64,000 bases of DNA from Crambe crambe (taxonomy: Eukaryota; Porifera; Demospongiae; Poecilosclerida; Crambeidae). How positions within the stretch are numbered: the stretch's first letter is position 1; each line of letters starts with the position of its first letter. The notes under the pieces are model-generated. The model saw only the letters and a list, made by a program, of their open reading frames with translations. It made no database searches and was not told the DNA's origin. The stretch lies in contig OZ004594.1 of NCBI GenBank assembly GCA_963924555.1, forward strand, positions 1 through 64,000, written 5' to 3'. This document shows, piece after piece, positions 1 to 31,937 of the stretch. A program made the position numbers and the translations under genes.

Positions 1-3000
1 CCTAGCCCTAGCCCTAGCCCTAGCCCTAGCCCTAGCCCTAGCCCTAGCCCTAGCCCTAGCCCTAGCCCTAGCCCTAGCCCTAGCCCTAGCCCTAGCCCTA
101 GCCCTAGCCCTAGCCCTAGCCCTAGCCCTAGCCCTAGCCCTAGCCCTAGCCCTAGCCCTAGCCCTAGCCCTAGCCCTAGCCCTAGCCCTAGCCCTAGCCC
201 TAGCCCTAGCCCTAGCCCTAGCCCTAGCCCTAGCCCTAGCCCTAGCCCTAGCCCTAGCCCTAGCCCTAGCCCTAGCCCTAGCCCTAGCCCTAGCCCTAGC
301 CCTAGCCCTAGCCCTAGCCCTAGCCCTAGCCCTAGCCCTAGCCCTAGCCCTAGCCCTAGCCCTAGCCCTAGCCCTAGCCCTAGCCCTAGCCCTAGCCCTA
401 GCCCTAGCCCTAGCCCTAGCCCTAGCCCTAGCCCTAGCCCTAGCCCTAGCCCTAGCCCTAGCCCTAGCCCTAGCCCTAGCCCTAGCCCTAGCCCTAGCCC
501 TAGCCCTAGCCCTAGCCCTAGCCCTAGCCCTAGCCCTAGCCCTAGCCCTAGCCCTAGCCCTAGCCCTAGCCCTAGCCCTAGCCCTAGCCCTAGCCCTAGC
601 CCTAGCCCTAGCCCTAGCCCTAGCCCTAGCCCTAGCCCTAGCCCTAGCCCTAGCCCTAGCCCTAGCCCTAGCCCTAGCCCTAGCCCTAGCCCTAGCCCTA
701 GCCCTAGCCCTAGCCCTAGCCCTAGCCCTAGCCCTAGCCCTAGCCCTAGCCCTAGCCCTAGCCCTAGCCCTAGCCCTAGCCCTAGCCCTAGCCCTAGCCC
801 TAGCCCTAGCCCTAGCCCTAGCCCTAGCCCTAGCCCTAGCCCTAGCCCTAGCCCTAGCCCTAGCCCTAGCCCTAGCCCTAGCCCTAGCCCTAGCCCTAGC
901 CCTAGCCCTAGCCCTAGCCCTAGCCCTAGCCCTAGCCCTAGCCCTAGCCCTAGCCCTAGCCCTAGCCCTAGCCCTAGCCCTAGCCCTAGCCCTAGCCCTA
1001 GCCCTAGCCCTAGCCCTAGCCCTAGCCCTAGCCCTAGCCCTAGCCCTAGCCCTAGCCCTAGCCCTAGCCCTAGCCCTAGCCCTAGCCCTAGCCCTAGCCC
1101 TAGCCCTAGCCCTAGCCCTAGCCCTAGCCCTAGCCCTAGCCCTAGCCCTAGCCCTAGCCCTAGCCCTAGCCCTAGCCCTAGCCCTAGCCCTAGCCCTAGC
1201 CCTAGCCCTAGCCCTAGCCCTAGCCCTAGCCCTAGCCCTAGCCCTAGCCCTAGCCCTAGCCCTAGCCCTAGCCCTAGCCCTAGCCCTAGCCCTAGCCCTA
1301 GCCCTAGCCCTAGCCCTAGCCCTAGCCCTAGCCCTAGCCCTAGCCCTAGCCCTAGCCCTAGCCCTAGCCCTAGCCCTAGCCCTAGCCCTAGCCCTAGCCC
1401 TAGCCCTAGCCCTAGCCCTAGCCCTAGCCCTAGCCCTAGCCCTAGCCCTAGCCCTAGCCCTAGCCCTAGCCCTAGCCCTAGCCCTAGCCCTAGCCCTAGC
1501 CCTAGCCCTAGCCCTAGCCCTAGCCCTAGCCCTAGCCCTAGCCCTAGCCCTAGCCCTAGCCCTAGCCCTAGCCCTAGCCCTAGCCCTAGCCCTAGCCCTA
1601 GCCCTAGCCCTAGCCCTAGCCCTAGCCCTAGCCCTAGCCCTAGCCCTAGCCCTAGCCCTAGCCCTAGCCCTAGCCCTAGCCCTAGCCCTAGCCCTAGCCC
1701 TAGCCCTAGCCCTAGCCCTAGCCCTAGCCCTAGCCCTAGCCCTAGCCCTAGCCCTAGCCCTAGCCCTAGCCCTAGCCCTAGCCCTAGCCCTAGCCCTAGC
1801 CCTAGCCCTAGCCCTAGCCCTAGCCCTAGCCCTAGCCCTAGCCCTAGCCCTAGCCCTAGCCCTAGCCCTAGCCCTAGCCCTAGCCCTAGCCCTAGCCCTA
1901 GCCCTAGCCCTAGCCCTAGCCCTAGCCCTAGCCCTAGCCCTAGCCCTAGCCCTAGCCCTAGCCCTAGCCCTAGCCCTAGCCCTAGCCCTAGCCCTAGCCC
2001 TAGCCCTAGCCCTAGCCCTAGCCCTAGCCCTAGCCCTAGCCCTAGCCCTAGCCCTAGCCCTAGCCCTAGCCCTAGCCCTAGCCCTAGCCCTAGCCCTAGC
2101 CCTAGCCCTAGCCCTAGCCCTAGCCCTAGCCCTAGCCCTAGCCCTAGCCCTAGCCCTAGCCCTAGCCCTAGCCCTAGCCCTAGCCCTAGCCCTAGCCCTA
2201 GCCCTAGCCCTAGCCCTAGCCCTAGCCCTAGCCCTAGCCCTAGCCCTAGCCCTAGCCCTAGCCCTAGCCCTAGCCCTAGCCCTAGCCCTAGCCCTAGCCC
2301 TAGCCCTAGCCCTAGCCCTAGCCCTAGCCCTAGCCCTAGCCCTAGCCCTAGCCCTAGCCCTAGCCCTAGCCCTAGCCCTAGCCCTAGCCCTAGCCCTAGC
2401 CCTAGCCCTAGCCCTAGCCCTAGCCCTAGCCCTAGCCCTAGCCCTAGCCCTAGCCCTAGCCCTAGCCCTAGCCCTAGCCCTAGCCCTAGCCCTAGCCCTA
2501 GCCCTAGCCCTAGCCCTAGCCCTAGCCCTAGCCCTAGCCCTAGCCCTAGCCCTAGCCCTAGCCCTAGCCCTAGCCCTAGCCCTAGCCCTAGCCCTAGCCC
2601 TAGCCCTAGCCCTAGCCCTAGCCCTAGCCCTAGCCCTAGCCCTAGCCCTAGCCCTAGCCCTAGCCCTAGCCCTAGCCCTAGCCCTAGCCCTAGCCCTAGC
2701 CCTAGCCCTAGCCCTAGCCCTAGCCCTAGCCCTAGCCCTAGCCCTAGCCCTAGCCCTAGCCCTAGCCCTAGCCCTAGCCCTAGCCCTAGCCCTAGCCCTA
2801 GCCCTAGCCCTAGCCCTAGCCCTAGCCCTAGCCCTAGCCCTAGCCCTAGCCCTAGCCCTAGCCCTAGCCCTAGCCCTAGCCCTAGCCCTAGCCCTAGCCC
2901 TAGCCCTAGCCCTAGCCCTAGCCCTAGCCCTAGCCCTAGCCCTAGCCCTAGCCCTAGCCCTAGCCCTAGCCCTAGCCCTAGCCCTAGCCCTAGCCCTAGC

Positions 3001-5833
3001 CCTAGCCCTAGCCCTAGCCCTAGCCCTAGCCCTAGCCCTAGCCCTAGCCCTAGCCCTAGCCCTAGCCCTAGCCCTAGCCCTAGCCCTAGCCCTAGCCCTA
3101 GCCCTAGCCCTAGCCCTAGCCCTAGCCCTAGCCCTAGCCCTAGCCCTAGCCCTAGCCCTAGCCCTAGCCCTAGCCCTAGCCCTAGCCCTAGCCCTAGCCC
3201 TAGCCCTAGCCCTAGCCCTAGCCCTAGCCCTAGCCCTAGCCCTAGCCCTAGCCCTAGCCCTAGCCCTAGCCCTAGCCCTAGCCCTAGCCCTAGCCCTAGC
3301 CCTAGCCCTAGCCCTAGCCCTAGCCCTAGCCCTAGCCCTAGCCCTAGCCCTAGCCCTAGCCCTAGCCCTAGCCCTAGCCCTAGCCCTAGCCCTAGCCCTA
3401 GCCCTAGCCCTAGCCCTAGCCCTAGCCCTAGCCCTAGCCCTAGCCCTAGCCCTAGCCCTAGCCCTAGCCCTAGCCCTAGCCCTAGCCCTAGCCCTAGCCC
3501 TAGCCCTAGCCCTAGCCCTAGCCCTAGCCCTAGCCCTAGCCCTAGCCCTAGCCCTAGCCCTAGCCCTAGCCCTAGCCCTAGCCCTAGCCCTAGCCCTAGC
3601 CCTAGCCCTAGCCCTAGCCCTAGCCCTAGCCCTAGCCCTAGCCCTAGCCCTAGCCCTAGCCCTAGCCCTAGCCCTAGCCCTAGCCCTAGCCCTAGCCCTA
3701 GCCCTAGCCCTAGCCCTAGCCCTAGCCCTAGCCCTAGCCCTAGCCCTAGCCCTAGCCCTAGCCCTAGCCCTAGCCCTAGCCCTAGCCCTAGCCCTAGCCC
3801 TAGCCCTAGCCCTAGCCCTAGCCCTAGCCCTAGCCCTAGCCCTAGCCCTAGCCCTAGCCCTAGCCCTAGCCCTAGCCCTAGCCCTAGCCCTAGCCCTAGC
3901 CCTAGCCCTAGCCCTAGCCCTAGCCCTAGCCCTAGCCCTAGCCCTAGCCCTAGCCCTAGCCCTAGCCCTAGCCCTAGCCCTAGCCCTAGCCCTAGCCCTA
4001 GCCCTAGCCCTAGCCCTAGCCCTAGCCCTAGCCCTAGCCCTAGCCCTAGCCCTAGCCCTAGCCCTAGCCCTAGCCCTAGCCCTAGCCCTAGCCCTAGCCC
4101 TAGCCCTAGCCCTAGCCCTAGCCCTAGCCCTAGCCCTAGCCCTAGCCCTAGCCCTAGCCCTAGCCCTAGCCCTAGCCCTAGCCCTAGCCCTAGCCCTAGC
4201 CCTAGCCCTAGCCCTAGCCCTAGCCCTAGCCCTAGCCCTAGCCCTAGCCCTAGCCCTAGCCCTAGCCCTAGCCCTAGCCCTAGCCCTAGCCCTAGCCCTA
4301 GCCCTAGCCCTAGCCCTAGCCCTAGCCCTAGCCCTAGCCCTAGCCCTAGCCCTAGCCCTAGCCCTAGCCCTAGCCCTAGCCCTAGCCCTAGCCCTAGCCC
4401 TAGCCCTAGCCCTAGCCCTAGCCCTAGCCCTAGCCCTAGCCCTAGCCCTAGCCCTAGCCCTAGCCCTAGCCCTAGCCCTAGCCCTAGCCCTAGCCCTAGC
4501 CCTAGCCCTAGCCCTAGCCCTAGCCCTAGCCCTAGCCCTAGCCCTAGCCCTAGCCCTAGCCCTAGCCCTAGCCCTAGCCCTAGCCCTAGCCCTAGCCCTA
4601 GCCCTAGCCCTAGCCCTAGCCCTAGCCCTAGCCCTAGCCCTAGCCCTAGCCCTAGCCCTAGCCCTAGCCCTAGCCCTAGCCCTAGCCCTAGCCCTAGCCC
4701 TAGCCCTAGCCCTAGCCCTAGCCCTAGCCCTAGCCCTAGCCCTAGCCCTAGCCCTAGCCCTAGCCCTAGCCCTAGCCCTAGCCCTAGCCCTAGCCCTAGC
4801 CCTAGCCCTAGCCCTAGCCCTAGCCCTAGCCCTAGCCCTAGCCCTAGCCCTAGCCCTAGCCCTAGCCCTAGCCCTAGCCCTAGCCCTAGCCCTAGCCCTA
4901 GCCCTAGCCCTAGCCCTAGCCCTAGCCCTAGCCCTAGCCCTAGCCCTAGCCCTAGCCCTAGCCCTAGCCCTAGCCCTAGCCCTAGCCCTAGCCCTAGCCC
5001 TAGCCCTAGCCCTAGCCCTAGCCCTAGCCCTAGCCCTAGCCCTAGCCCTAGCCCTAGCCCTAGCCCTAGCCCTAGCCCTAGCCCTAGCCCTAGCCCTAGC
5101 CCTAGCCCTAGCCCTAGCCCTAGCCCTAGCCCTAGCCCTAGCCCTAGCCCTAGCCCTAGCCCTAGCCCTAGCCCTAGCCCTAGCCCTAGCCCTAGCCCTA
5201 GCCCTAGCCCTAGCCCTAGCCCTAGCCCTAGCCCTAGCCCTAGCCCTAGCCCTAGCCCTAGCCCTAGCCCTAGCCCTAGCCCTAGCCCTAGCCCTAGCCC
5301 TAGCCCTAGCCCTAGCCCTAGCCCTAGCCCTAGCCCTAGCCCTAGCCCTAGCCCTAGCCCTAGCCCTAGCCCTAGCCCTAGCCCTAGCCCTAGCCCTAGC
5401 CCTAGCCCTAGCCCTAGCCCTAGCCCTAGCCCTAGCCCTAGCCCTAGCCCTAGCCCTAGCCCTAGCCCTAGCCCTAGCCCTAGCCCTAGCCCTAGCCCTA
5501 GCCCTAGCCCTAGCCCTAGCCCTAGCCCTAGCCCTAGCCCTAGCCCTAGCCCTAGCCCTAGCCCTAGCCCTAGCCCTAGCCCTAGCCCTAGCCCTAGCCC
5601 TAGCCCTAGCCCTAGCCCTAGCCCTAGCCCTAGCCCTAGCCCTAGCCCTAGCCCTAGCCCTAGCCCTAGCCCTAGCCCTAGCCCTAGCCCTAGCCCTAGC
5701 CCTAGCCCCTAGCCCTAGCCCTAGCCCTAGCCCTAGCCCTAGCCCTAGCCCTAGCCCTAGCCCTAGCCCTAGCCCTAGCCCTAGCCCTAGCCCTAGCCCT
5801 AGCCCTAGCCCTAGCCCCTAGCCCTAGCCCTAG
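1..5833. repeat. Telomere, (CCCTAG)n / (CTAGGG)n tract
   Basis: About 970 head-to-tail copies of CCCTAG, read as CTAGGG on the minus strand, so the G-rich strand runs 3' toward the window's left end as expected for a true chromosome terminus. No variant unit is visible over the first ~5.7 kb. Two units with an extra C (near 5707 and 5815) occur only at the inner edge, a usual pattern of proximal degeneration. The unit differs from the canonical animal TTAGGG by T to C at the first position. Every unit contains the palindrome CTAG, so both strands carry it. Confidence 0.95.
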
Positions 5834-5883
5834 GGATCCTTCTCCATGCCCCTAGCCCTAGCCCTAGCCCTAGCCCTAGCCCT
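5834..5883. repeat. Telomere-subtelomere junction with interrupted CCCTAG units
   Basis: The telomere tract is broken by a short unique stretch (GGGATCCTTCTCCATGCC, 5833-5850) and then resumes for about six CCCTAG units before the 20-bp satellite starts directly at 5884. The interruption marks the limit of the homogeneous array and may be an old end-healing or recombination joint. Confidence 0.8.
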
Positions 5884-6619
5884 ATGGTGGGCATCAATTA
5901 GATATGGTGGGCATCAATTAGATATGGTGGGCATCAATTAGATATGGTGGGCATCAATTAGATATGGTGGGCATCAATTAGATATGGTGGGCATCAATTA
6001 GATATGGTGGGCATCAATTAGATATGGTGGGCATCAATTAGATATGGTGGGCATCAATTAGATATGGTGGGCATCAATTAGATATGGTGGGCATCAATTA
6101 GATATGGTGGGCATCAATTAGATATGGTGGGCATCAATTAGATATGGTGGGCATCAATTAGATATGGTGGGCATCAATTAGATATGGTGGGCATCAATTA
6201 GATATGGTGGGCATCAATTAGATATGGTGGGCATCAATTAGATATGGTGGGCATCAATTAGATATGGTGGGCATCAATTAGATATGGTGGGCATCAATTA
6301 GATATGGTGGGCATCAATTAGATATGGTGGGCATCAATTAGATATGGTGGGCATCAATTAGATATGGTGGGCATCAATTAGATATGGTGGGCATCAATTA
6401 GATATGGTGGGCATCAATTAGATATGGTGGGCATCAATTAGATATGGTGGGCATCAATTAGATATGGTGGGCATCAATTAGATATGGTGGGCATCAATTA
6501 GATATGGTGGGCATCAATTAGATATGGTGGGCATCAATTAGATATGGTGGGCATCAATTAGATATGGTGGGCATCAATTAGATATGGTGGGCATCAATTA
6601 GATATGGTGGGCATCAATT
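5884..6619. repeat. Subtelomeric 20-bp satellite, ~36.8 copies
   Basis: Tandem repeat of ATGGTGGGCATCAATTAGAT: 36 full units (5884-6603) plus a 16-bp partial unit ending at 6619. I see no substitution between units, which implies recent expansion or strong homogenisation. It abuts the last CCCTAG units with no spacer. There is no open reading frame of note. Confidence 0.95.
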
Positions 6620-6779: not shown

Positions 6780-7340
6780 AGCAGAAAGTTTACACAGAGA
6801 GCAATTTTATGATATCAAAATTATATGTATATACTTGATATTTCAAAATTTATGATAGCCAGAAGTCACCATCAGTTATGAACTTTGAAGAAACATTACC
6901 ATATTTTTAAATTATCGGAATGGATGAAGTAAGCATATGAACAGAAAGCATACATAAAGAGCAATGCTATGGTATTAAAATTGTATGTATATACATGATA
7001 TTTCAAAAGTTATGATAGCCAGAAGTCATCATCAGTTATGAGTAGGTTGAAATTTTGACGACCCTTTACCTTTGTTTTGAAAATTAGTAAGCATATGAAC
7101 AGAAAGCTTACGTAAAGAGCAATGCTATGATATCGAAATTATCTGTATACACTTGATATTTCAAAAGTTATGCTAATCGTCAGTTATTTTGAAGACCTTT
7201 TACAATATATTTTCGAAATTATCAGTATGGCTAAACTAAGCATATCGATAGAAAGATTAAATAGAGGGCAATGCTATTATATTTCTTTATATTTCAAAAT
7301 TTTTGATGGAATGAAAGTATTGTGGGTATCATATTTTACT
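6780..7340. repeat. Degenerate ~155-bp tandem array (about 3.5 copies)
   Basis: Copies start near 6781, 6941, 7100 and 7251. Each begins with a CAGAAAG...AAAGAGCAATGCTATG-like core, followed by a ...TTGATATTTCAAAAG core and a segment resembling GATAGCCAGAAGTCATCATC. They diverge by several percent with small indels. The DNA is AT-rich and non-coding. A short AT-rich reading frame at 7170-7355 falls inside the array and is not considered a gene. Confidence 0.8.
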
Positions 7341-7465
7341 GATATCCACAAATAATTTTAATATCAGTACATAGCTCTCTGTGTGTACTTTCTGATCACA
7401 TGTTTAATTTGTGAATATCAGTAAAATATGATACCCACAATACTTTCATTCCATCAAAATTTTTG
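7296..7465. repeat. Imperfect palindrome at the end of the ~155-bp array
   Basis: The left arm (about 7296-7353, core GGTATCATATTTTACTGATA) recurs in reverse complement at about 7410-7465 around a ~55-bp spacer. A further reverse-oriented, longer copy of the same family lies at 8160-8290 and ends with the complement of the array core. The array unit therefore exists in both orientations here, as a foldback element or a broken inverted duplication would leave it. Confidence 0.75.
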
Positions 7466-7559
7466 GGCTAGAGCTAGTTAATGACAGAAAGATTGTTGCT
7501 ATTACTGTGATTAACTTATTGTTCCTGCCCCCCCCAATAAATTTCCTATTCCTATTCCA

Positions 7560-9700: not shown

Positions 9701-10545
9701 GAAAGGTATGTATCAATTTAGGAGCCAAGGGTGCAGCCTAAGAGATTGATTTCAGTGCAATGGATTGATCCAAACGTTCAAACTGCAAGAGATCCTTTCA
9801 TACAAGAGGGATTGTGTTCTTATGTACACTAGGGTGAGAGAAAAGTATGTATCGATTTAGGAGCCAAGAGGTTAAAGCTGCGGCCGAGGAGATTGTTTTA
9901 AGTTCAATGGATTGATCGAAACTTTCAAACTTCAAGAGATCCTTTCATACAAGAGGGAATTTTGAGGAATTGTGTTCTTAGAAGAGAGAAAGGTACATAT
10001 CAATTTAGGAACGAGGTGTTAAAGCTGCGGCCAAGAAAATTGATTTCAGTGCAAATGGGTTGAGCGAAATGTTCAAACTTCACAGATCCTTTCATACAAG
10101 AGGGAATTTGGAGGGATTGTGTTCTTGTGTCCACTAGGTTGAGAGAAAGCTATGTATCAATTAAGGAGCCAAGGAGTTAAAGCTGCTGCCAAGGAGATTG
10201 ATTTCATTGATCAAAGTGTTCAAACTGCAGAGGGAATTTGGAGGGATTGTGTTCTTATGTACACTAGGTTGAGGGTAAAGTATGTATCAATTTACAAGCC
10301 AAGGGGTTATAGCTGCAGCGAAACTTTTAAACTGCAAGAGATCATTTCAAACAAGAGGGAATTAGGAGGATTGTGTTATTATGTAGACTAGGTTGAGGTT
10401 AAAGTATGTATCGATTAAGGAGCCAAGAGGTTAAAGCTGCGGCCGAGGAGATTGATTTCAGTGCAATGGATTGATCGAAACATTCAAACTTCAAGAGATC
10501 CTTCCACACAAGAGTGAATTTGGAGGGATTGTGTTTTATGTACAT
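9655..10545. repeat. Tandem array of ~125-158 bp units derived from the LINE relic
   Basis: At least six copies of a unit with GGATTGTGTTCTTATGTACA, TATGTATCAATTTAGGAGCC and GTTAAAGCTGCGGCC cores. TATGTATC occurs at about 9708, 9847, 9992 (variant), 10152, 10280 and 10405. Unit length varies by internal deletion. The first copy is continuous with the LINE fragment and partial frames read WRDCVLMYTRLRxKYVSI, so the unit appears to be an amplified piece of the element just downstream of the endonuclease. All frames are broken and no functional protein is proposed. Confidence 0.75.
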
Positions 10546-10659
10546 GTTTTATGCCTGCCACTTAACACAGCAAATTTTCTAAAGACTTGAAGCACAAAAG
10601 TACTTGCTCGCTGGCTGTCAAATGTTTCACATTGCCTTAGTACGTATCCCTGATGTTTT

Positions 10660-11165
10660 TTGATGATCACTGAATGACTTGATAGAATTCTACAAATTCA
10701 AACATGTTTTTGAAATAATTATTATTATAAAAATCCCCTGATTTTCGAGATATAATAAACCTTTTAAGGGTAATCAGACATACCACCCATACATAGTTGC
10801 AGTCTCCAAAACTGCTAATGTGAAAATCCACATGACTAAGACACTACTATGTATCACACTGGAAATTTATGGTTAGTAATTACATTCACCACATGGTTAC
10901 TATGTCTGACTTCACAGATATGGTACAACAGTAATAACCCCTTAATGACTTGAGAGAATTCGAAGAATTTCAAATATGTCATGGGGAATTACCAGCATGT
11001 TATACATATGCAATTTCATAGAATTCCCCCTGATGGTTTTTGAGATATGGTATTGCAGTAATAACCCCTTAATGACTTAACGGAATTCAAAGAATTTGTA
11101 TGGAATTACTAGTATGTCATATATATGTAATTTCATAGAAATCCCTTTTGTTATTAAGGAGTTAT
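10660..11165. repeat. Degenerate direct repeats, ~110-125 bp
   Basis: The segment TAATAACCCCTTAATGACTT followed by AGAATTC...AATTTCATAGAA occurs at about 10932-11038 and 11060-11150. A more diverged copy lies near 10670-10760 (GAATGACTTGATAGAATTC). AT-rich, non-coding. Confidence 0.6.
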
Positions 11166-13094
11166 AACCATTTGTCATCATTGGGAGATACCTATACAAG
11201 TCCTAGCCCTAACCATTCTAGTTAAGACAGAACCTGTTCTAGCAGAACTCCGGTTCATATTGTTAACACTGTTTTATCTCTTCAATGCAGGTCAATTACA
11301 AAATGCCATCAATCCTTGCAGCCACTCCCTTCTAGTAGTTTGTAGTGTGTATATAGCTTTCTTAAGTGCTAGCTCTATGGATATACAGTAGTTACTTGCT
11401 CTTGCTGCAGCTTTACAATAATAAAGAGCATTCCAACACTTTTTACTAGCTACGTACTTTCCTCGCTTGCTTAAGATTTAGCTCCTAGTCACTACATTCC
11501 TATTGAGTCGATGACTACACTTGCTGTGGTGATTGTGTTTTTGTTTTTTGTTGTTTTTTGTTTGTTTGTTTGTTTTTCAGCAGTATGAGATTCATACTCT
11601 GATATTGGATATCAGGTTGCAACTGCTATAAGTTGCTTGTTCCTAAGTCATTGCCGTGTCAGCAAATCCAAAGATATCTCTGTCCCATTTGTTTCATTCC
11701 ATCATCTATTATCTGTGTGTTTCTCTTTCAAATCTGCCATGCCTGCCATGTCCATCAACTCCTTCCAGTCAGACATTATCTTGTCTAACATGTCGCCATG
11801 TCATAATGGCCAGTCAACTCTGACATGTTAGATTATTTTCCTCGCTAGTCCTTCAGGTCAGAGATCAAATATAACTCGTACCAGTACAGCCTGATCCCCA
11901 TGCAGTTGTGTAAACTGAGGACCCCGAACCATTTGCAATGGAGAGTATTATGGCTTCTATCTATACTTGCTGCATACAGTACCAACCTCACCATAGAAAT
12001 ATACATCGGGACTTAATTGCTAATAATTGCACGACACAATAATTGCCAATATTGCATTTTTTTGGTTGCAAAGCTCCAAATTCTGCTTGAATGTTCTCCT
12101 CTGACCCCTGAAAGGACGGTGAGCCAAGTCCAAGCTAAGTCATGGCCCGAGCTAAGTCATGGCCCCACGGAATTTGGGGGGCCAAATTTCAATTTAGCCC
12201 ACATTGTGGAATTTCACCACTAAATAAGACAGTGCTCGACAATGCATGATTGTGAAATAAGACAAATCTACGATTTGAGTTTGGTGAAGATGAAAAACAT
12301 GTGAGACTGTACCTCTGGCCACTCTCCTTTTATAAGGTGTGTTTCCATGATTTGCTGCCGACCTTTTCAATGTAACTGCTTTCTCAATTTGAACTTGCAC
12401 ACCGTGCTTTACAGCCTTCCCAAAAACTCCAGTTAATGCAAAGACACTGTTGAGTTTATGTTCAATGGGCAGTATATTAAGTCTTAGGGTACATGAAAGG
12501 GTCAGGTCCTTGTAAGCCACTACTTACTTCTTGTTCCTTACTGACAACCATCCTGAATGTTAGGAGCCCTATTGCAAGTTTGTTGTCAGAGTTCTTGTAT
12601 TCCAACCAACCAACAAGCTTAGAGATTCCTTTTCCTTGCAGGGACAAGAAGTTAAAGGATTAGCCTATATACCTGATTGCTACTGACCTAATTGGCCTTG
12701 TTTATTATTAGGTACCAGAAGAGTCTGGTTTGCTCTTTCCACTGAAGTGATCATCAGAAGGGTTTTAATCATGTCACTGACGATACAAAGTAGAACTAAT
12801 TACTTACAGCACACTAATTGCTGTTACTTTTATTGCCCAACAGTTGCATAAGAGGAAGACGAGGTGTAGATAGGATGCAGTAGAGGTGGAGAGAAGATAT
12901 CATTCGGATCAACTGACTAGTGGTGCTGTCCTTGTGATCGGATCAAAACTGTGATACTCAAAGCACACGCTTGGTTTTACTAAAGATCTGCAGTGCTGAT
13001 GAACCCTATAAATTTAGTCACAATAAAACCATTTTCCATTTTGAATTTTCAAACTGCTCAAAATATACTATGGAATGAAAGTGAAATCTTCTGA
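11166..13094. other. Gene-free subtelomeric stretch
   Basis: No supported gene. Visible items are a TG/T-rich microsatellite at 11537-11577 with repeated TTTG, and a short direct repeat AGCTAAGTCATGGCCC at about 12134-12168. A minus-strand reading frame at 12194-12520 (108 aa) has no recognisable domain and no splice or codon signal that I can defend. It is left uncalled. Confidence 0.5.
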
Positions 13095-14113
13095 TGTGGC
13101 ACCATAGATATAAGATGTTTACGGGATTGGAAACGGATCACGTGCTCTCGTTAGCAACTAACAACCGAGGCGCGTTGACAGCTGCACTTTTGTCAAAGTT
13201 GCTGTTCTGACAAGATCCGTGAGGTAAGACTTATGCCAATGATACTATAATACACTAGGGCATAGATTTACTGTATGAAATAAATTTCAGCTCAGATTTT
13301 CAAGTTTACTCCTACAAATACTACTGTAGTGGTTAATGGGACTGTAATCCCTCTTACGCTTGATGGAATCAATTGCTGTTGCCCATTTTCTGATCAAAAG
13401 GCATGTAAACTTTAGCTACATGGAATAGTAATGTTGGTTTTTGTATTAGCTGACATATATTGTCTCTAGCATTTGCAAGTGGTGTTAAAACTGTAATCCC
13501 TCTCCCAAGAAATAGATTAACAATATTGAAACTGTATTAGTTATTTCAGGGAAAGGATAGAACAGTAAATGGAATTGGTGCATTCGTTTTCTATACAATA
13601 GTCATCCTATGGAGATGGCAAGCTTACTATATTTCCCCCCTAATATCCATAGGGTCCACAGGACAGCTGACTGAGCCGAATTCTTGAGGTGGATGGTGTC
13701 AAAACCCAACAGCCAAAAGCTGGAAGTATTGCAATAATGTTGATGAGGGAGAACTGAGCAGAAAACTGGCGGATAACTTTGGGGCAAAAATTATCTAGCT
13801 ATAATAATAATGAATTTATGTCTAATTTTAATACCAAAAGTCATTCTGGCCTTTCTTTCAAATCAATCACATAAAATTAATGTATAATGAGCAATGATAG
13901 GTACTCATAGTTATAATTACAAGGAAAAAAGTTATGAATAATTAATAACTTCCTTCCTCAGACTCTCCAACTTCAACTCTCTGACTCTTCACTTCTTCAA
14001 TACCTTCCCCTTAGCTTACTTGTACTATTCTGTGAGCTGTAGGGGCAGAATATCACTTTAACTGCCTTGAAAGGAGTGAATATTGATCTCTTTTCACAAC
14101 GATTAATATGATA

Positions 14114-14393
14114 CAAGTAAAGAAAAAACATTTATTCGAATAAATGAAGGTGATGTAGGGATGACTATAGTTAACTGGTCAAAAAAGAGATGAAACAAGA
14201 TCTGAATAGATGAGATTATGCAAGGATGAAGTCGAATGTGGGCACGTCACACCTAGTGACTGCACCCGGATTCGACTTCATCCTTGCATAATCTCATCTA
14301 TTCAGATCTTGTTTCATCTCTTTTTTGACCAGTTAACTATAGTCATCCCTACATCACCTTCATTTATTCGAATAAATGTTTTTTCTTTACTTG
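14114..14393. repeat. Perfect palindrome: 124-bp arms, 32-bp loop
   Basis: Arm 14114-14237 and arm 14270-14393 are identical reverse complements over all 124 bases by my base-by-base reading. The loop is 14238-14269. The outer part of each arm also contains the 14-bp palindrome TTTATTCGAATAAA. Transcription would give a long perfect hairpin RNA. There is no protein evidence; a small frame crossing the palindrome (14210-14452) is a by-product. The alternatives are a foldback MITE or an assembly foldback artefact. Confidence 0.9.
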
Positions 14394-15366
14394 TTTCTTT
14401 CATTTTTTATTTATTAATTTTTTGCAGGTCATTATATCCATCTCATAGCTAGCTAGCTACTTGTTATGCCAGGCCCATTATTTTTGTGATTTCTTTTTCA
14501 GGAGGTGATCAGTGCTGTACATTTATAGCTTCTTTATTCTACACATACCAGTTATAAGTAAAGTCAGGCCTGGGATGAGGTTAATATGAGTGGTAGTGGG
14601 AGAGCTGCAGTTCATAAAGTCTTGTGTTGCAATGCACAATCAAGCCTGGTGAACAATTGAGTGAGACTAAAGCCTTCAGTTCTAAATAGATACAGCTGAG
14701 CAGCCTGCCAGGTTTCGTTTCTAAATAATGCACACCTCACGGGAACTCGAGCGTTACTTACCATTCAAAGTTTAAACCTGTCCTTAGTACAGATAGCCTT
14801 ATCTTAGAACTAGTTTTTTTGTTGACCTCAGAAGAAATGGCTTTTAAGTTTTGTTTGAGAAGAGTCATGGCAACTTTGTTGTTTACGCATGCGCGTTATG
14901 TTTAATGGCTTCTTCGTATAGTCTACTGTAGTAAGATAGCGGCTTTTTTCTGAGTGAACTAGAGGCTAAACCGATGGGACGTGGACCTGGTCCGAGTAAA
15001 ATGGAGCAGATTCATATATAGAACATGGCCCAAGCGTGGCCCATTTTTTCTCCAGATCGTGCCATTATGATTATGAACAAGAAAATAAGAAATCATGCAA
15101 AAAGTGCGCTTTTATTATTCTTCCGTGTTGAGTCTTTCAGCTTCCAAAATTCTCCTGCATGATAAGAATGTGCATAAAAGACAGGATAAGCAGTCATAGC
15201 AGCTACAACTTACTGTTTTCTGAGAAAATCCAACTTCATTTTGTATTAGTTCTATGGAGGGTCATAGGTCATCCCTACATAGAGAGCGCTACCGCGCTCT
15301 CTGATAATTAATGCTGCATGCGCGTGCGCATCTGTCAACGCGCCACGGTTGTGCAGTTCATTGGGC
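14394..15366. other. Gene-free stretch with GC-rich Nrf1-like patches
   Basis: No gene is supported. CG-rich alternating patches ACGCATGCGCGTTA (14885-14898) and GCATGCGCGTGCGCA (15314-15328) look like Nrf1-type promoter sites in otherwise AT-rich DNA. They could mark a non-coding transcript start, but no product can be read nearby. Confidence 0.35.
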
Positions 15367-16492
15367 CATAGATATACTAGACTACGTACACAGGATTGGA
15401 AACAGATCACGTGCGCCCATAACGACAATACTGACAATCCGTGTAGGCAGCTGTTCGTGCTAAATTGCCCCAAACAAACAGGGGAGGAGAAGTAGTGTGC
15501 CAAATTTCTGCTAAACTATAGCCAATTGGTAAGTTCAAAGAATGCAAAGAGTGGGCTAGTATAGTGCTAAACAAGCATAGTTCTTAAAAAGGCTGGTTTC
15601 TCAAGTGTTAGAGGGTATAATTGCGAGTAACAATGGTAGTTCGACTTTGTGGACCTCTGGAGCTTGGATGTTAAAAGTATAGTCTCTTTTTCCCCACTAA
15701 TCTGTTAGGTAGTGATCATTTATATGTACATATGTACTTTTTAAAGGTGCCTGAAAAAAAATCATGTCGATGTTACTGTTTCTTCAGATTACCCATGGCT
15801 GGCTGTCAAGAAAAGCTATAGTAAAGAAAGATACTATAATGTAACAACTAATACTGTCACTTTACACATATTTCCTTTCATATTATAATTAAAAAATGAT
15901 AATAACAAGTACTGATAGTGCACTGCTGAACATCCAATTCATCGAGAGATTTGTTGTGATATACTTGTTTTGAGGGATCAAGATGAAGAGTAAAGCTGCC
16001 CCAGTGTATCCTTTCCTGCCCCTGATACAAGAAGGTATCTCATCTCCTCATATAAGAACAACAACATAGTGAAATGGCTTCTTAAACCATCAATGGCAAA
16101 TGGCATGTCATCTCCAGCCCTGCACAAAATTAAAACTACTTGAGTACATATGGTCAACTAGTATCTTTCATTTTGTACCAAAAGTAAGGCAGCTAGACTT
16201 CTATTTTAGTAGTAGGAGTGCCACAAAACTTTTCAGTCACCTGTTTCCACGTTTTTCTTCCATAGCAACAGTAAATAGACTAAACTGACATGATAAACTA
16301 CTACAGCTATAGGTCATTGAGCCTTTTCACTTATAATCATAATTATTGCTGCGCTAAATACCTTGCCTTTCATCCTCTTTCTTATTTTGTGTAAGATTTC
16401 TCTGTTCGCCAGGTACCTACACGGATGGTCTATAAATTCTACGCGCGCATGCCCTGTTTCCAATCCTGTGTACGTAGTCTAGTATATCTATG
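15367..16492. mobile_element. Putative 1.13-kb non-autonomous element with identical 39-bp TIRs
   Basis: 15367-15405 is an exact reverse complement of 16454-16492 (core TAGACTACGTACACAGGATT). The 1.05-kb interior is AT-rich with no recognised coding sequence. This element lies inside the larger 13095-16538 inverted pair, and the two right-hand termini are only 7 bp apart. Identical arms over 39 bp suggest recent activity or conversion. Confidence 0.55.
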
Positions 16493-16593
16493 ATTGGGCG
16501 TTTCCAATCCCGTAAAACCTCATATCTATGGTGGCACAAGTAGTTAGCGCATGCTCAGGACATCCGGTAGAATATCCGGAATTTAAAAAATTA

Positions 16594-18241
16594 ATGGAGG
16601 ATTCGGTATTAAATCTGGCCAATAATGTGGCTGTTTGTGCTGGATTGTCGGGCTCCGTCTCTTCGTTGAAGCAGTGTAACTCGGACTTGTACCGTAGGTT
16701 TTATGAGTCCCTGACTGGATTACAAATCTCATATGGAAAAGAGTCAGAGGAGGATCAAAAGTGCCAGTTAATAATAGACTCGCTTGAAAGGCACCTATCA
16801 CCACTGCTCCACGTTAATTTGGATCATATTAGGGGTTCTGATATAGCATTAAATGATCAAGTAGCTATTAAAAATTTGCTGGATGTATTCTTCATATTAC
16901 TGAGTGCAACTTCGAAACCAGCTTCACACTCCAAGTCCAACATAGATGCCAGCACCAGTGCCGTACCCAATGCTGTACCAACTTTGCATGATGTTTTATG
17001 TACTCCAAAACGTTCAAATCGTGATGAGCAATGTATTCACGCTCCTCTTCTTCATTCTACACCTCATGCACGTACCCGTTCTAGGCTGCCACCAAGCCCT
17101 GCTACAAATTATGTATCCAAAAGAGCTGAGTCGGATTGCAGAAGTGATTCTCCTGTCAGTTTTGATAGTGTCCTCACTGCTCTCTATCGTGGTTATTTGA
17201 AAGATGTACAGTTTTATTCAGCAGATATCGGACAGAAAACACCTTTGATCACTTTACCCACAAAATATGCTAAATCAGAGGTTCTGTATGAGCTTCAGAA
17301 TACCAAAAAACATCGTAAGTTGCAAAAAATTCATAATAATTATTATTATTGTTCCTTGAATTAGCATCTGAGAATATCCTACAGCAAACTGAAGAAGCCT
17401 TACCCTTTATTTATACTGCTCCTTCGACTCTGAAGCTTTTGAGACGGAGAGAAGGTTGCCATGAGACGGAGAGAAAGTTGCCACCTTCTCATATGACCAG
17501 AACAGTTTTGGATGTTGGACGAAAGCAACAAGCTATGTTACATTTATTGGAAAAGGATTTGAATCATGCTAAAGTTCTACAAGAAAATAGACAGAGAAAA
17601 TTTCAAGAACGGTGTGTGAGAATGGCTATTCACTCGAAAAGGTCAGCTAGCGCCAGAGCATTCAAGTACTTCCAAAACTATGAACTTCAGCTAAAATCCA
17701 AGCTACAAAGAGCAAGAACAAGAGAAGAACAAATATTCATAGGAACGTTTAAAAGAGGCTTGAAGATGCAGCAACAGCATAGAAGAGAAACTAGAAAATA
17801 TACCAAGGAACAAAAGATCTTGCTAGAGCAGCAGGTCTGTGAACAACTCGAAGCAATGGAAACATTGTATCTTTAAGTATAAAAATATCCTTATACTGTG
17901 GCCTTTTTCTGTTAATTTGCATAGTATGGTGCATGCAAATGTTCACCTCTATTTCCTTAGCTTCATTCCCAAGTTATCGTGATCAGTTTGCAATGTTAGG
18001 TCATCTCCTTAAGCAAGAAAAGTGGATGGTGCAGAATGCAGAAACAGTACATAAACAGGTTTGCATTGTGTTGCTAAGATTATTTAACACTGAACCTCTG
18101 TTTGCCACCTAGGTACTGAGTTCTATCAAAGATGAATTTTGTGATAAAATTGAAATGGAAATAAAGCAACTGCAACAAGCAATAGACAGAGAAGAAGACA
18201 TATGTCATTTTAGAAACTTGGATGCTCGAAATCGTTATTAG
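16594..18241 (+). CDS. CEP95: Centrosomal protein CEP95-like
   Basis: Centrosome/basal-body protein of poorly defined function. Four exons read as 16594-17314, 17365-17866, 17974-18058 and 18113-18241, giving about 478 aa (human about 820). The N-terminal ~110 residues carry the family signature, a CH-like fold, visible as CQLIIDSLERHLSPLLHVNL followed by NDQVAIKNLLDVF. A disordered Ser/Pro-rich middle follows. The C-terminal ~200 residues are charged coiled coil with RARTREEQIFIGTFKRGL and YRDQFAML, as in vertebrate CEP95. An upstream in-frame ATG at 16528 lies inside an inverted repeat, so the second ATG (16594), matching the family N-terminus, is preferred. It is the first gene from the telomere. 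A half X-box (CCATAGCAAC) sits about 330 bp upstream. Confidence 0.85.
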
Positions 18242-18255
18242 ATTTTTTTATAACT

Positions 18256-18269
18256 GTTACCATGGTTAC
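18256..18269. promoter_or_regulatory. X-box-like RFX site upstream of the small gene
   Basis: GTTACCATGGTTAC fits the RFX X-box GTNRCC-(0-3)-RGYAAC with one mismatch and is nearly palindromic. It is 33 bp upstream of the ATG at 18303 and 14 bp after the CEP95 stop. RFX factors drive ciliary genes. Confidence 0.55.
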
Positions 18270-18302
18270 TGTTGTGGCACGTAGCTAGCTAGCTACTATA
18301 CT

Positions 18303-18631
18303 ATGGCCGACAGGAAGTTCAGCAACACCATCACGAAAGCTACCCTTCCTCCGCTGGAGTGGATAGCTACCAAGGAAACGAACATGGAGAAAAGAGAGCC
18401 TTGTGAAGTAATTTCCGTACTAGCTTGGCTTTAGTCATGAGATTGATTTAAATGCAGATATGGAGATCAGGAATCAATAAGCAGCTTCTGATAATGAAAG
18501 AACAAATGGTATTACATAATTAACTAACCTAGCTAGCGTTAATATAATTGACATTCTCTATTCTTTAGTCAATCTGCAAAGATATCGTACATCACTTGGA
18601 AACTGGCAAACAATTATTTAGATATTCGTGA
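18303..18631 (+). CDS. Small conserved-looking protein, 75 aa, possibly ciliary
   Basis: Not recognised. Three exons with clean GT-AG introns in phase 0 (18303-18416, 18458-18508, 18569-18631) encode 75 aa: MADRKFSNTITKATLPPLEW... then IWRSGINKQLLIMKEQM and a helical C-terminus ending QLFRYS. The composition is charged and helical, with no signal peptide or membrane segment, similar in size and style to small microtubule-inner or axonemal proteins. It follows CEP95 on the same strand with an X-box-like site and an AGCTAGCT motif just before the ATG. It converges on DCTN5, whose stop is 12 bp away. The ciliary role is an inference from the X-box only. The reading frame is too short for standard ORF cut-offs. 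Confidence 0.6.
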
Positions 18632-18643
18632 TTGCAAAAGCTA

Positions 18644-19346
18644 TCATGTCTTTTTAGCAGGTTGAAAGTGTTGGTAGTAACTTCTAGTTGCTTCGATCAT
18701 CAAATCTTGCGTTGAACTGGGTAGCTCCCCACTGATCCTTCCTGGTGACCCACTAAATACAGTAAATGGAGGTACTACAGTTTCAGGGGCCAATACTGTG
18801 TTATCTTCAATTCTACAGCAATCTTTCAAAATACAGGAACGGGACTGCATAACAAGAAAATCAATCTATGCTCGACGAAAAAATGGATACTTACTATCAC
18901 ACAGTTTTTTCCTATCGAAACATAGGAACCAATTGCAGAAGCATTAACTATTGTGTTTTCTCCGACAATCACATTGTCGCCAATTTGTAGAGGATAGAAT
19001 GCACCGCTACACAGACTCGCAAATAAAGTTAGGTCTATTTGGTAGCTAGTCTCACCCGTGAGAAAGTTTCCTAAATGGTGGAGTGATTACTGCTCCAGAG
19101 CCTATAACACACTGCCTACCCACATTGATATTTGCCAAATCACCACGAATGATGCAGCCTGTCTGAACAATAGTCTTTCCGTTCAGCACAATGTTTTTAC
19201 TGCCACATAAAATACAAGTTCTGCTCACTTTATTTCCAGATGCCTGCATCGGATTAACACAGTTTAATATATCATAAAAGAAAAGTAGCAGAAATAACCG
19301 TTTCTATGTACTCGGCACTCTCATAGTAGCTATCCAACTGTTCCAT
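18644..19346 (-). CDS. DCTN5: Dynactin subunit 5 (p25)
   Basis: Component of the dynactin pointed-end complex that adapts dynein to membrane cargo. Four exons (19346-19299, 19243-19056, 19006-18895, 18844-18644) give 182 aa, the same length as the human protein. The protein folds as a left-handed beta helix of hexapeptide repeats. Diagnostic segments are [59 protein letters not shown] and [16 protein letters not shown]. All are collinear with the vertebrate protein. The gene is head to head with RPTOR (166 bp) and tail to tail with the small gene (12 bp). Confidence 0.95.
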
Positions 19347-19512
19347 GATAATCTAAGGTCCAAAAGGTCAACTAAATGGCACGTGCTTGAGATCAACATG
19401 CTGATTGTGCAAACTGATGATTCAGTCACCTGTACGTGTAGTTTTCTGTATTTGGCAGCTTGTATCCAAACAGACATTGCTTTTTTTTTTTTTTACCTAG
19501 CCTGGCGCAGTA
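19347..19512. promoter_or_regulatory. Bidirectional promoter, DCTN5 / RPTOR
   Basis: Both genes start at the ends of this 166-bp gap. It contains a CACGTG E-box (19380-19385) and a T-run ending just before the RPTOR ATG. Confidence 0.5.
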
Positions 19513-22500
19513 ATGTCGCAACTACTAGGTGCTCTGCATGTGGACCCCTTTGCAGTAGAGGATCCTTCTGAACTTCCTGATTGGCAAATCCCTCTAAGCT
19601 TCATGAAAGATAGACATACTTCTAGCTTGGAAAATAGGGATGGCAAGACTAATAATGACTCTTGGAGGATTAAAGATCGGGTATGTAACCATGTGAAATA
19701 CTTGCTACAATGTAGATTGTTGTGTTTCCCAGATGAAGACTTGGAGTGTGGCATTGGTATTATGCCTGAATATTGGAGTAGATCCACCAGATGTTGTGAA
19801 GACCAATCCTTGTGCTCGCAAAGAATCCTGGATAGGTTAGTCTTTTCCTTCTATCCTGTTTCTAATAGTGATGATGGGTGGAATACAGATCCATTAGCAA
19901 TGAGCCCTCAGAAAGGTCTGGAGTTAATAGGAAATAATCTCCAGAAGCAGTATGAAAGATGGCAACCACGAGCCCGTTATAAGCAGCTGTTGGATCCAAC
20001 AACTGAAGAAGTCCGTAAACTCTGTCTTGCCCTCCGCAAGAATGCCAAGGTCAGAATTATTATAGTATTATTATAATAATCTTTATCGTCATTGATTTTA
20101 TTATTAGTATGAAAGGGTGCTGTTTCATTATAATGGCCATGGAGTCCCTAAGCCAACACAGAATGGAGAAATATGGGTGTTCAATAAAGTAATATTTGAA
20201 TTCATGATTACAGTGGAACCTCTAAATGCGGACACCTTTGGGACCAGCGAAAAGTGTCCTGATTAAAGAGGTGTCTTTATTTCAAGGGTTAAATTATACA
20301 CATTTATATTGTGTTGGGACAAGAAAAAGTGTCCTGATTAGAGAGGTTTTTGCATTTCAGGGAGTCCACATTTAGGGGTTCCACTGTATAAGTATTCAGT
20401 CTCTCTCTCTCTCTCTAGAATTATACTCAGTACATCCCCCTCTCCGTATACGACCTCCAGGCTTGGATGGGAAGTCCTTCTATTTATATATACGATTGCT
20501 CGCATGCTGGTATGAGAGTTTGCCCATCTGAATCTGCATTTTACACCCTTCGTTAATGTAGGCTTAGTGGTTGATTCCTTTAAAAATTTTTCTCGACAGC
20601 GAGACAGTGAATTCTTTCTCGAGGTTAGTATTGTGTGTTCTTCGCAAATCTTGTACCAACAAATTTGGTCTCATGATATAGAGTTCTTCTCCTGTGACCA
20701 CTAACGTGGGTCTCTTGGAAAGTAGTATACAGCTGGCTTCTTGTGGATCAAAGGAGCTCCTACCCATGAATCCTATGCTCCCTGCGGATTTATTTACTTC
20801 CTGCTTGACCACACCCATAAAAACTGCACTCCTCTGGTATTGCTATCATAAAGTGGGGCACATTAGTCTTGTTTCTGGAATCACTCCAGATATGATTGAT
20901 AAGTTAGTATTTTCATTCGTGAATTCTGGTGATGATGATGGTGGTGGTCGCCTCTTTCCTCCTTGCAGAGTTCCTGGTCGACTAAATGACAGGCGTACTC
21001 CTTTGGGAGAATTGAACTGGATATTTACGGCCATTACTGACACCATAGCTTGGAATACCATGCCCCGAGGTACGTATGTGGTAATTCTTGATTCCACTCG
21101 AAAAGCAATCCCCCCTCCCTCCTGCAGATCTCTTCCAGAAGCTATTCAGACAAGACCTTTTGGTTGCCAGTTTATTTCGTAACTTTCTTTTAGCTGAACG
21201 GATCATGCGCTCGTATAACTGCACTCCCGTATCCTATCCTTCCCTACCAACTTGTTACCAACATCCCATGTGGCAGGCTTGGGACCTTGCTTTGGATCAC
21301 ATACTAGCCCAGCTTCCTGCACTTTTGGAAGGAAAAGCCACCTATGAGGTTTTTACACTTCTGTAATTCATCACGTTTGTAAGAGTTTTTGTTTGTTTTT
21401 TTCCTACAGCCTAGCCAATTCTTTGCCCAGCAATTAGCAGCTTTCCAGGTCTGGCTAGTGAACTGCTCCAATGACCATAAACCTCCACAACAACTGCCAA
21501 TCGTTTTGCAGGTGAAATTGTGTCCTCCTCTTGTAATTCTTGGTGTTATTTCGTTCTCTTTATAGTTTCTCCTCAGTCAGGCTCACCGCTTGCAAGCTCT
21601 GGAGCTGCTAGGCAGATTTCTCGACCTTGGCCCGTGGGCTGTACATTCGGCTCTCTCGGTGGGCATTTTCCCTTACGTTCTGAAGTTGCTTGGAAGTAAG
21701 CTAAAGGAGCTTCAGCCCATTTTGGTGTTCATCTGGGCCAAAATCTTATCCGTGGACTCGGTGAGTTGCTGTGTGTTTGCAGTAGAAGTGCTAATGTAAT
21801 GCAGCATCCTTTGTAGTCTTGCCAAAGTGACCTGGTGAAAGATGGTGGTTACAAGTACTTTATCCAGATTTTGTCAGACCAGAGCATAAAGTTCGAGAAT
21901 CGGACAATGGCAGCCTTTGTGCTCTCTGTTATCATAGATAACTACAGCAAGGGTCAAGTAAATGTGGAATACGGAGAAAATATATTTCGTTTCAAATGGT
22001 GGATTTATTTCTACAGGAAGTTTGCCTGCAGAGCAATGTGATCTCCTTGTGTTTATCTCAGTTGGAAGAACCTAATCCACTCCTCAAACAATGGTTGGCT
22101 ATATGCTTAGGGAAACTCTGGTGCAGATATGACGCGGCCAGATGGTGTGGTGTGAGGGATACCGCTCACGAGAAATTGCAGAGCCTGTTGTGGCATGATA
22201 TTCCTGATGTGAATAGACCCTCCCTTTAACGCTGTCACTCATTTCCTTTGTGTCCCTTAGGTTCGTGCTGCAGCTGTGTTTGCTCTTGGGACTTACATCT
22301 TGAATCCCACAGAAGATGGGGGACACTCCGAACTTGCCACCAGCATAGACCACAATATCACTGTGCGCTTGCTGGCTTTGCTCACAGATGGTAGTCCCAT
22401 CGTCAGGCAGGTGCACGACCGCTTCCCCTTTCCTTTATTTTGTGGCTTACATTTTTTTAACCGTTGCCATAGGAATTGGTGAGTGCTCTGCATGGCCTCG

Positions 22501-24898: not shown

Positions 24899-24942
24899 AG
24901 TGAATGTGTTGTGTGATTTTTATTATTATTGTTGTTGCTATT

Positions 24943-24978
24943 GTTCTCTCTCTCTCTCTCTCTCTCTCCCTCCCTCCA
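24943..24978. repeat. (TC)n microsatellite in the RPTOR/arrestin 3' gap
   Basis: About 14 TC units followed by CCTCCCTCC between two convergent gene ends. A shorter (TC)n run lies in an RPTOR intron at 20400-20417. Confidence 0.9.
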
Positions 24979-25048
24979 TTCCATTTTTGAAGATAGGTTA
25001 TTAATACACATACTATATACACACAATGATAAAAAAGAAAATGAAGTG

Positions 25049-31244: not shown

Positions 31245-31937
31245 TCAGTCTTCTTCGTCCTCTTCCCCACCGCTTCCTCCTGCTCCGCCTTGAGCCTTGC
31301 GTTGGTTCTTCCTCTTTACACGACCTGGTCTTCCTCCACCAAGTGGTGAAGTCAGTGCAAGATCAATGTGTTTCTGCGAGTCCAATCGCACGACGAATGA
31401 AGGGACGTTCACAATTTGTTTGCGTACCCTACAATAGACGACCCACAATATTAAAACTTTTCGGGATTGATGTACTAACCTAATATGCCTGTGCCGTATG
31501 AGAACTCTGGCATGATGAATACTTTTGGCTAATCCAAGTTTAAACACTTGAGTCTGCAGTCGTCGTTCCATGAAATCTTCGACCTTTAGACCCAAGACGT
31601 AATCCAGTTTCATCCGTGCCTCGTCCAGAACACCTATCCTTACCAACCTTCGCAGAAGAGCATTACCTTCAAATAATCTCTTGGTATTCTTTTCGTCCAG
31701 GGTAAGTAATTCTCGAGCAGCTGTTCGAATTTTTGCCAGAGTTAAACGAACACGCCATACTTCCCGCTTGTTCCTCAACCCAAATTGACCTATGCAAAAG
31801 GAAACGACACACTCGAGACCTGTAGCTTCCATTATCAAAGGTGTTATACCTATTAACTTGAGTTCTTGGTCCAATCGAGCCTTCTCAAACGGCCGTCTTG
31901 GGGTCTGATAAGTCTTGGAACATACTGTCCGAGGCAT
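31245..31937 (-). CDS. RPS9: 40S ribosomal protein S9 (uS4)
   Basis: Small-subunit assembly protein near the mRNA entry channel. Starts [20 protein letters not shown]; an upstream in-frame ATG (31943) is not needed. Family blocks are [40 protein letters not shown], the S4 RNA-binding domain [20 protein letters not shown] and [19 protein letters not shown] with an acidic tail. Two introns (60 bp inside LIG|QFGLRN, and 51 bp inside HIR|VRKQ) are multiples of three without stop codons, so the unspliced gene reads as one open frame. A pyrimidine tract CCTTTTCTCT upstream could be the TOP element. Confidence 0.96.

What the first reader, a model, noticed from the sequence alone, without database searches (positions are those of the whole stretch)
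1..5833. Chromosome end built of pure CTAGGG instead of TTAGGG
Seen: ~970 near-perfect CCCTAG units, with G-strand polarity right for a terminus and irregular units only at the inner edge. Known: animals ancestrally use TTAGGG. Vertebrate TRF Myb domains read YTAGGGTTR and POT1 reads TTAGGGTTAG; both are destroyed by CTAGGGCTAG. In humans, CTAGGG variant arrays are known to be replication-unstable. Inference: the lineage has changed its telomerase RNA template (to something like CUAGCCCUAG) and must have co-adapted its telomere-binding proteins. I do not recall a described animal with a wholly CTAGGG telomere.
Basis: partly seen in the sequence, partly recalled or inferred. Interest (0 to 1): 0.9.

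Follow-up and report, generated by a model that had tools for sequence, protein, structure and literature searches.

The report
Sponge telomeres built of CTAGGG
The chromosome tips of this animal, almost certainly the sponge Crambe crambe, are made of the unit CTAGGG instead of the usual animal unit TTAGGG, a one-letter change in the chromosome-end code that also makes each unit partly self-complementary.

Summary
Window 1-5833 is a terminal array of 971 CCCTAG units with no CCCTAA. The genome has 18 large contigs, whose lengths match the published Crambe crambe assembly (Demospongiae) for 17 of 18. Of 36 large-contig ends, 28 carry this repeat at the tip with correct polarity; none shows a TTAGGG array in what was read. 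In 14 left-end arrays read through, 13,806 of 13,856 units are exactly CCCTAG. Genome-wide, (CTAGGG)4 matches 40,889 times and (TTAGGG)4 twice. TERT, two POT1-type genes and two TRF-like Myb domains are encoded. Best explanation: telomerase templates CTAGGG after a template change. The telomerase RNA was not found, so that step is inferred. Co-adapted binding proteins are not shown, and "destroyed" is too strong: held papers say POT1 binds (CTAGGG)n efficiently in vitro and TRF1/2 binding is diminished. Each unit contains palindromic CTAG, so both strands can pair with themselves. My searches of one library found no report of CTAGGG as a main telomere unit. New variant of a known kind.

The parts
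1..5833 (.). Terminal telomeric array: 971 CCCTAG units on the + strand; G-strand (CTAGGG)n on the - strand, 3' end at base 1
5834..5849 (.). 16-base non-telomeric insert (contains GGATCC) near the inner edge
   Evidence: run limits
5850..5884 (.). Last five CCCTAG units plus CCCTA: inner end of the tract
5884..6619 (.). Subtelomeric satellite, 20-bp unit ATGGTGGGCATCAATTAGAT, about 36 copies; the same satellite family lies directly next to 8 of the 14 arrays read through (this one included)

Best explanation
The window begins at a natural chromosome end. In this species, inferred to be the demosponge Crambe crambe, telomeres consist of (CTAGGG)n instead of the usual animal (TTAGGG)n. Shown: the repeat lies at most chromosome tips with correct polarity, is nearly pure, and TTAGGG arrays are practically absent from the assembly. 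Inferred: telomerase makes it, using an RNA template changed by one base (A to G at the position that specifies the first T, e.g. CUAGCCCUAG), and the old TTAGGG tracts have been replaced by turnover. The ends are presumably bound by the POT1-type and TRF-like proteins that the genome encodes. Every unit contains CTAG, which is its own complement, so the 3' overhang can in principle pair with itself or with other ends, besides folding into the quadruplex with a G-C-G-C tetrad known for human CTAGGG.
For: 15 of 18 left ends are CCCTAG from their first bases (13, C17, C21; first unit at base 1-6) and 13 of 18 right ends finish in CTAGGG. In 14 arrays of 4.8-8.6 kb, 13,806 of 13,856 units are canonical and one token holds CCCTAA. 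(CTAGGG)4 40,889 matches against (TTAGGG)4 2; with C or T allowed at position 1, 40,932, leaving 41 mixed 24-mers. The two (TTAGGG)4 sites are short and interior. TERT RNA-binding domain over Pfam's cut-off; two POT1 OB-fold genes; two TRF-like Myb domains with TRF2 as best PDB match. Self-pairing of the G-strand: -5.2 kcal/mol for (CTAGGG)8, 0 for (TTAGGG)8.
Against: 8 of 36 ends carry no array at the tip: C1, C12 and C15 left; C1, C10, C13, C17 and C21 right; C1 and C12 instead have arrays joined head-to-head further in. The telomerase RNA was not found: Rfam's vertebrate model gave 0 matches and only 14 of 74 template-like sites could be read. No enzyme assay or raw reads. POT1 shows no obvious change peculiar to this species against 36 homologues of unnamed source. 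The C19 Myb domain also matches other Myb proteins such as SNAPC4 at a similar E-value. The (CTAGGG)8 fold is no better than any of its 200 shuffles, so self-pairing is not shown to be selected.
Confidence: 0.9

Rival explanations
1. The CTAGGG arrays are subtelomeric blocks, and a true TTAGGG cap lies beyond the assembled ends.
For: In humans CTAGGG occurs as a variant within TTAGGG telomeres; assemblies can lose the outermost bases.
Against: None of the 28 assembled tips shows a TTAGGG array; (TTAGGG)4 occurs only twice in 119 contigs, both times interior, so no unplaced contig of perfect TTAGGG repeats is in the assembly; arrays are 4.8-8.6 kb and nearly pure to their first bases.
Confidence: 0.04
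2. The sequence is a sequencing or consensus artefact of real TTAGGG.
For: Telomeric repeats are mis-called by some nanopore base-callers (recalled).
Against: If the species assignment holds, the data are 459-fold PacBio HiFi with QV 58.1; the change is uniform in both contig orientations at 28 ends, while two short interior (TTAGGG)4 sites are read normally.
Confidence: 0.02
3. CTAGGG tracts are kept up by recombination or as a terminal satellite rather than copied by telomerase from an RNA.
For: No telomerase RNA found; head-to-head arrays in C1 and C12 show that these tracts take part in joins, real or artefactual.
Against: TERT is encoded; 99.6% unit purity in 14 arrays that border different subtelomeric sequences fits copying from a short template.
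Confidence: 0.06

Closest known systems
Canonical animal (TTAGGG)n telomere
   Same: Six-base unit, G-rich strand towards the tip, kilobase arrays at most ends, TERT, POT1-type and TRF-like proteins encoded
   Different: First base of nearly every unit is C instead of T; TTAGGG arrays are practically absent
(CTAGGG)n variant blocks in human telomeres (Mendez-Bermudez 2009 and Lim 2009, seen only as cited in PMC3867476, PMC8492063, PMC3919612)
   Same: Same unit; known quadruplex with a G-C-G-C tetrad; reported in vitro POT1 binding and diminished TRF1/2 binding
   Different: There a minority variant inside TTAGGG arrays and unstable in replication; here the whole telomere at 28 of 36 assembled ends
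Lineage-specific telomere repeat switches in other organisms, e.g. Mimulus (PMC12169523, passages), Cimex (TTAGGGATGG)n (PMC11354137, search listing only), Hymenoptera (PMC9841428 and PMC8977481, search listings only)
   Same: Repeat unit changed in one lineage; in Mimulus tied to the telomerase RNA template
   Different: Here a single base substitution in a non-bilaterian animal that keeps six-base length and creates a palindrome; template not identified
Sponge telomerase RNAs (Logeswaran 2020, PMC8480181, passages and part of one section: three sponges incl. Amphimedon queenslandica)
   Same: Expected type of RNA: box H/ACA, CR4/5, template with P1.1 boundary
   Different: No such RNA located in this genome; the sponge templates were not stated in the text I read

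Membership tests
Telomerase-maintained telomere | Short G-rich tandem repeat at most chromosome ends | tested here: met
   28 of 36 large-contig ends
Telomerase-maintained telomere | G-rich strand runs 5'->3' to the tip | tested here: met
   CCCTAG at left ends, CTAGGG at right ends
Telomerase-maintained telomere | Near-uniform units | tested here: met
   13,806 of 13,856 units in 14 arrays
Telomerase-maintained telomere | TERT encoded | tested here: met
   Pfam PF12009, 57.9 and 34.6 bits, both over the 25-bit cut-off; the first stretch holds one stop
Telomerase-maintained telomere | Telomerase RNA whose template matches the repeat | tested here: inconclusive
   RF00024 0 matches; 74 template-like 11-mers, 14 read, none convincing
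Telomerase-maintained telomere | Telomerase activity; Bal31 sensitivity | not testable with these tools
   bench work
Canonical animal TTAGGG telomere | Unit TTAGGG at the ends | tested here: not met
   0 of 36 ends in the stretches read; (TTAGGG)4 twice, both interior
Human-type CTAGGG variant block | CTAGGG as a minority variant within TTAGGG arrays | tested here: not met
   41 mixed 24-mers and 2 pure TTAGGG against 40,889 pure CTAGGG
Shelterin-type capping | POT1 with OB-fold DNA-binding domains | tested here: met
   Two genes: PF02765 93.9 and 49.2 bits; PF16686 in both, 53 and 29.1 bits
Shelterin-type capping | TRF with Myb and TRFH domains | tested here: inconclusive
   Two TRF-like Myb domains; TRFH model PF08558 0 matches, and it rang in no control genome

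The most novel reading that the evidence does not exclude
A non-bilaterian animal has completely replaced TTAGGG by CTAGGG through a one-base change in the telomerase RNA template. The new unit makes both telomeric strands self-complementary (CTAG in every unit), so that chromosome ends can cap or pair by Watson-Crick hairpins or dimers besides quadruplexes, and the two POT1-type and two TRF-like Myb proteins have been retuned to it.
Probability: 0.25. Interest if true: 0.82.

Novelty: new variant of a known kind. Interest (0 to 1): 0.64.

Why it matters
A template mutation in telomerase RNA rewrites every chromosome end and should disturb the proteins that read it, so completed switches are natural experiments on how tolerant that system is. 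The same unit, as a minority variant, is reported as unstable in human telomeres, yet here it appears to cap the chromosomes. The first position of the repeat is one of two at which variants accompany telomere extension by human telomerase (PMC3919612, passages), which suggests a route. Several chromosome-level demosponge genomes are public, so the date of the switch and the co-evolution of template, POT1 and TRF-like proteins can be tested.

Tried and rejected
Telomerase RNA. Rfam RF00024 on the genome: three calls unanswered (30, 34, 40), then 0 matches (in 5 of 14 control genomes it rang, over the cut-off in none). Template pattern CTAGCCCTAGC with non-array flanks: 74 sites (38+36) against 12 for the reversed control; 14 of 74 were read (L053-L060, L074-L079). 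No CR4/5 motif at 5 or fewer mismatches lies 40-600 bases downstream of the 8 sites L053-L060 (best 6). Rfam at E up to 1 on 16 loci gave two weak sub-threshold matches (MIR7996, SCARNA7) and no telomerase RNA; nothing convincing by eye in the other six. CR4/5 (P6.1) pattern recalled from human telomerase RNA: 348 hits at up to 3 mismatches (reversed control 16), 100 listed, most of them one dispersed repeat; 41 exact hits of a shorter form against 29 for the reversed control; the nearest pair of these 41 and the 74 template sites is 10,047 bases apart. Other template permutations were not searched.

POT1 contact residues: aligned with human POT1 and 36 homologues. Of positions that I recall as contacts, F62 and Q94 are kept in both Crambe copies and R83 in POT1a only; others vary across the homologues, so no co-adaptation can be claimed. 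Which homologues come from TTAGGG species is unknown. The TRFH family search was uninformative. Rfam at gathering thresholds found nothing in the window.

Literature: a search with permuted units returned 3,331 papers, and none of the 20 listed held any permutation, so it is weak. TeloBase paper: CTAGGG and CCCTAG do not occur in its main text; the database itself was not seen. The Crambe genome note has no word beginning telomer.

Full report
What is there. The window is base 1 to 64,000 of contig C17 of an unnamed 143.14-Mb genome with 119 contigs. Bases 1-5833 hold 971 CCCTAG units, no CCCTAA and no TTAGGG; the only irregular units are two CCCCTAG close to the inner edge. A 16-base insert and five more units follow, ending at about 5884, where a 20-bp satellite of about 36 copies begins.

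Which organism. The 18 large contigs (140.97 Mb together) have lengths that agree with Table 2 of the genome note of the sponge Crambe crambe (PMC12166358; passages seen) for 17 of 18; the exception is 9.17 against 9.18 Mb. The total is 143.14 against 143.20 Mb, and 119 contigs against 124 scaffolds. I infer Crambe crambe (Demospongiae, Poecilosclerida), C17 being chromosome 14. That assembly rests on 459-fold PacBio HiFi reads plus Hi-C, with QV 58.1.

Is it genome-wide? Left ends: 15 of 18 large contigs are CCCTAG from their first bases (first full unit at base 1-6). C1 and C12 carry arrays further in; C15 has only three units in its first 10 kb. Right ends: 13 of 18 finish in CTAGGG; C1, C10, C13, C17 and C21 do not. 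So 28 of 36 ends carry the repeat with the right polarity, and no stretch read at any end shows a TTAGGG array. Right ends were read for 300 bases only, and the C21 left end likewise. The other 101 contigs share 2.17 Mb; of them I looked at the starts of five (C2, C4, C7, C22, C23) and the end of one (C2), without arrays. In the 14 left arrays read through (4.8-8.6 kb), 13,806 of 13,856 units are exactly CCCTAG; the commonest deviations are CCCCTAG (18) and CCTAG (11), and a single token, in C13, contains CCCTAA. Genome-wide, (CTAGGG)4 matches 40,889 times (21,790 + 19,099), (TTAGGG)4 twice, and the pattern with C or T at each first position 40,932 times, leaving 41 mixed 24-mers. Both (TTAGGG)4 sites are short and interior. 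This excludes a local variant block and makes a hidden TTAGGG cap very unlikely.

What makes it. The genome encodes the TERT RNA-binding domain (PF12009, 57.9 and 34.6 bits; the first stretch contains one stop, which I take for an intron read through). It encodes two POT1-type proteins: C20:502097-502486, within a 591-residue reading frame, and C21:151856-152215; both match the POT1 families for the first and second OB folds. The first is found at 100% identity over its full length in a public protein set (P0001). Two TRF-like Myb domains lie at C18:1936517-1936666 and C19:2171514-2171666, with human TRF2 as best match in the PDB; the C19 copy also matches other Myb proteins at similar E-values. 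In the recognition helix the C18 copy keeps the S-V...K-D...R pattern, while the C19 copy has N-Q where TRF2 has V-M; that this V contacts DNA is my recollection. The telomerase RNA could not be found (see Tried and rejected). The step from CTAGGG DNA to a CUAGCCCUAG-type template is therefore inference from how telomerase works.

Do the binding proteins have to change? The passages I read are milder: PMC3919612 states, citing other work, that TRF1 and TRF2 binding is diminished in vitro by CTAGGG, and PMC8492063 states, citing other work, that (CTAGGG)n binds POT1 efficiently. An alignment of the Crambe POT1 proteins with human POT1 and 36 homologues shows no clear change peculiar to Crambe. 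Co-adaptation is possible but not shown, and may not have been needed for the single-strand binder.

A physical consequence. CTAG is its own complement, so each unit of either strand can pair with another. Folded as single-stranded DNA, (CTAGGG)8 gives a ladder of CTAG pairs separated by G-G mismatches at -5.2 kcal/mol, whereas (TTAGGG)8 gives 0. All 200 shuffles of the same dinucleotides fold at least as well, so this is no sign of selection, and the calculation ignores quadruplexes. For human CTAGGG an antiparallel quadruplex with a G-C-G-C tetrad is known (PMC3867476, passages). C1 and C12 contain head-to-head telomere joins; no N was found in the stretches read; the C12 junction is rich in CCTAGG palindromes. 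These may be assembly artefacts.

Known or new? I searched a library of 5.39 million open-access papers for CTAGGG with telomere (58 papers, 40 listed), CCCTAG with telomer (37, all listed), CTAGGG with telomer and genome assembly (4, all listed), for sponge telomere terms (81, 20 listed), for TeloBase terms (158, 10 listed) and for two of Crambe crambe, telomer, Poecilosclerida (128, 25 listed); no title or shown start of an abstract reports CTAGGG as the main telomere unit of an organism. The TeloBase paper does not mention it in its main text; the database itself, most subscription journals and preprints were not seen. Telomere unit switches as such are well known. I file this as a new variant of a known kind: a telomerase-type telomere with a unit for which I found no earlier report in an animal.

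Confidence. Genome-wide CTAGGG telomere: about 0.95. Made by telomerase with a changed template: about 0.87. Species Crambe crambe: about 0.97. Co-adapted binding proteins: open.

Noticed in passing
G000:C1 from 10215 to 24999 (L010) and G000:C12:765-9999 (L021): Telomeric arrays joined head-to-head (CTAGGG, then CCCTAG). C1: CTAGGG seen at 10,215-10,828 and 15,000-18,755 (between them not seen), then CCCTAG to at least 24,996; C12: about 7 kb, then at least 2.2 kb. The C12 junction is a run of CCTAGG palindromes. Real fusion, fold-back or assembly join; not decided.
   Followed up: partly
G000:C21:5671025-5671324 (L062): The right end of the smallest of the 18 large contigs is GC-rich and reads like a bacterial gene (a PotC-type permease end by my recollection, no search run), so perhaps a symbiont misjoin.
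   Followed up: no
window 5884-6619 and next to the arrays of C5, C10, C11, C14, C18, C19, C20: A 20-bp satellite (core GTGGGCATCAATT) directly abuts the telomere at 8 of 14 arrays read through, and lies inverted beside the C12 array.
   Followed up: partly
window about 7300-7470: A near-perfect inverted repeat with arms around the motif ATGGAATGAAAGTATTGTGGGTATCATATTTTACTGATAT, like a small fold-back element; seen by eye.
   Followed up: no
window 16516-17364 (+), 31245-31946, 37562-41656 and 57187-58486 (-): Protein-family matches begin about 11 kb inside the telomere: DUF5745, then a ribosomal S4/S9-type protein, a ubiquitin hydrolase (UCH) and a forkhead gene (9 frames scanned).
   Followed up: partly
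G000:C20:502097 and G000:C21:151856: Two POT1-type genes; the second has K-G where human POT1 and the first copy have H-R (positions 82-83 of human POT1), which suggests divergent roles.
   Followed up: partly
G000, e.g. C1:874266 and C5:3880280: A dispersed repeat carrying CAAGAATTCGGCTCAGTCAGC or a near form makes up most of the 100 listed of 348 hits, at some places in clusters about 1 kb apart.
   Followed up: no
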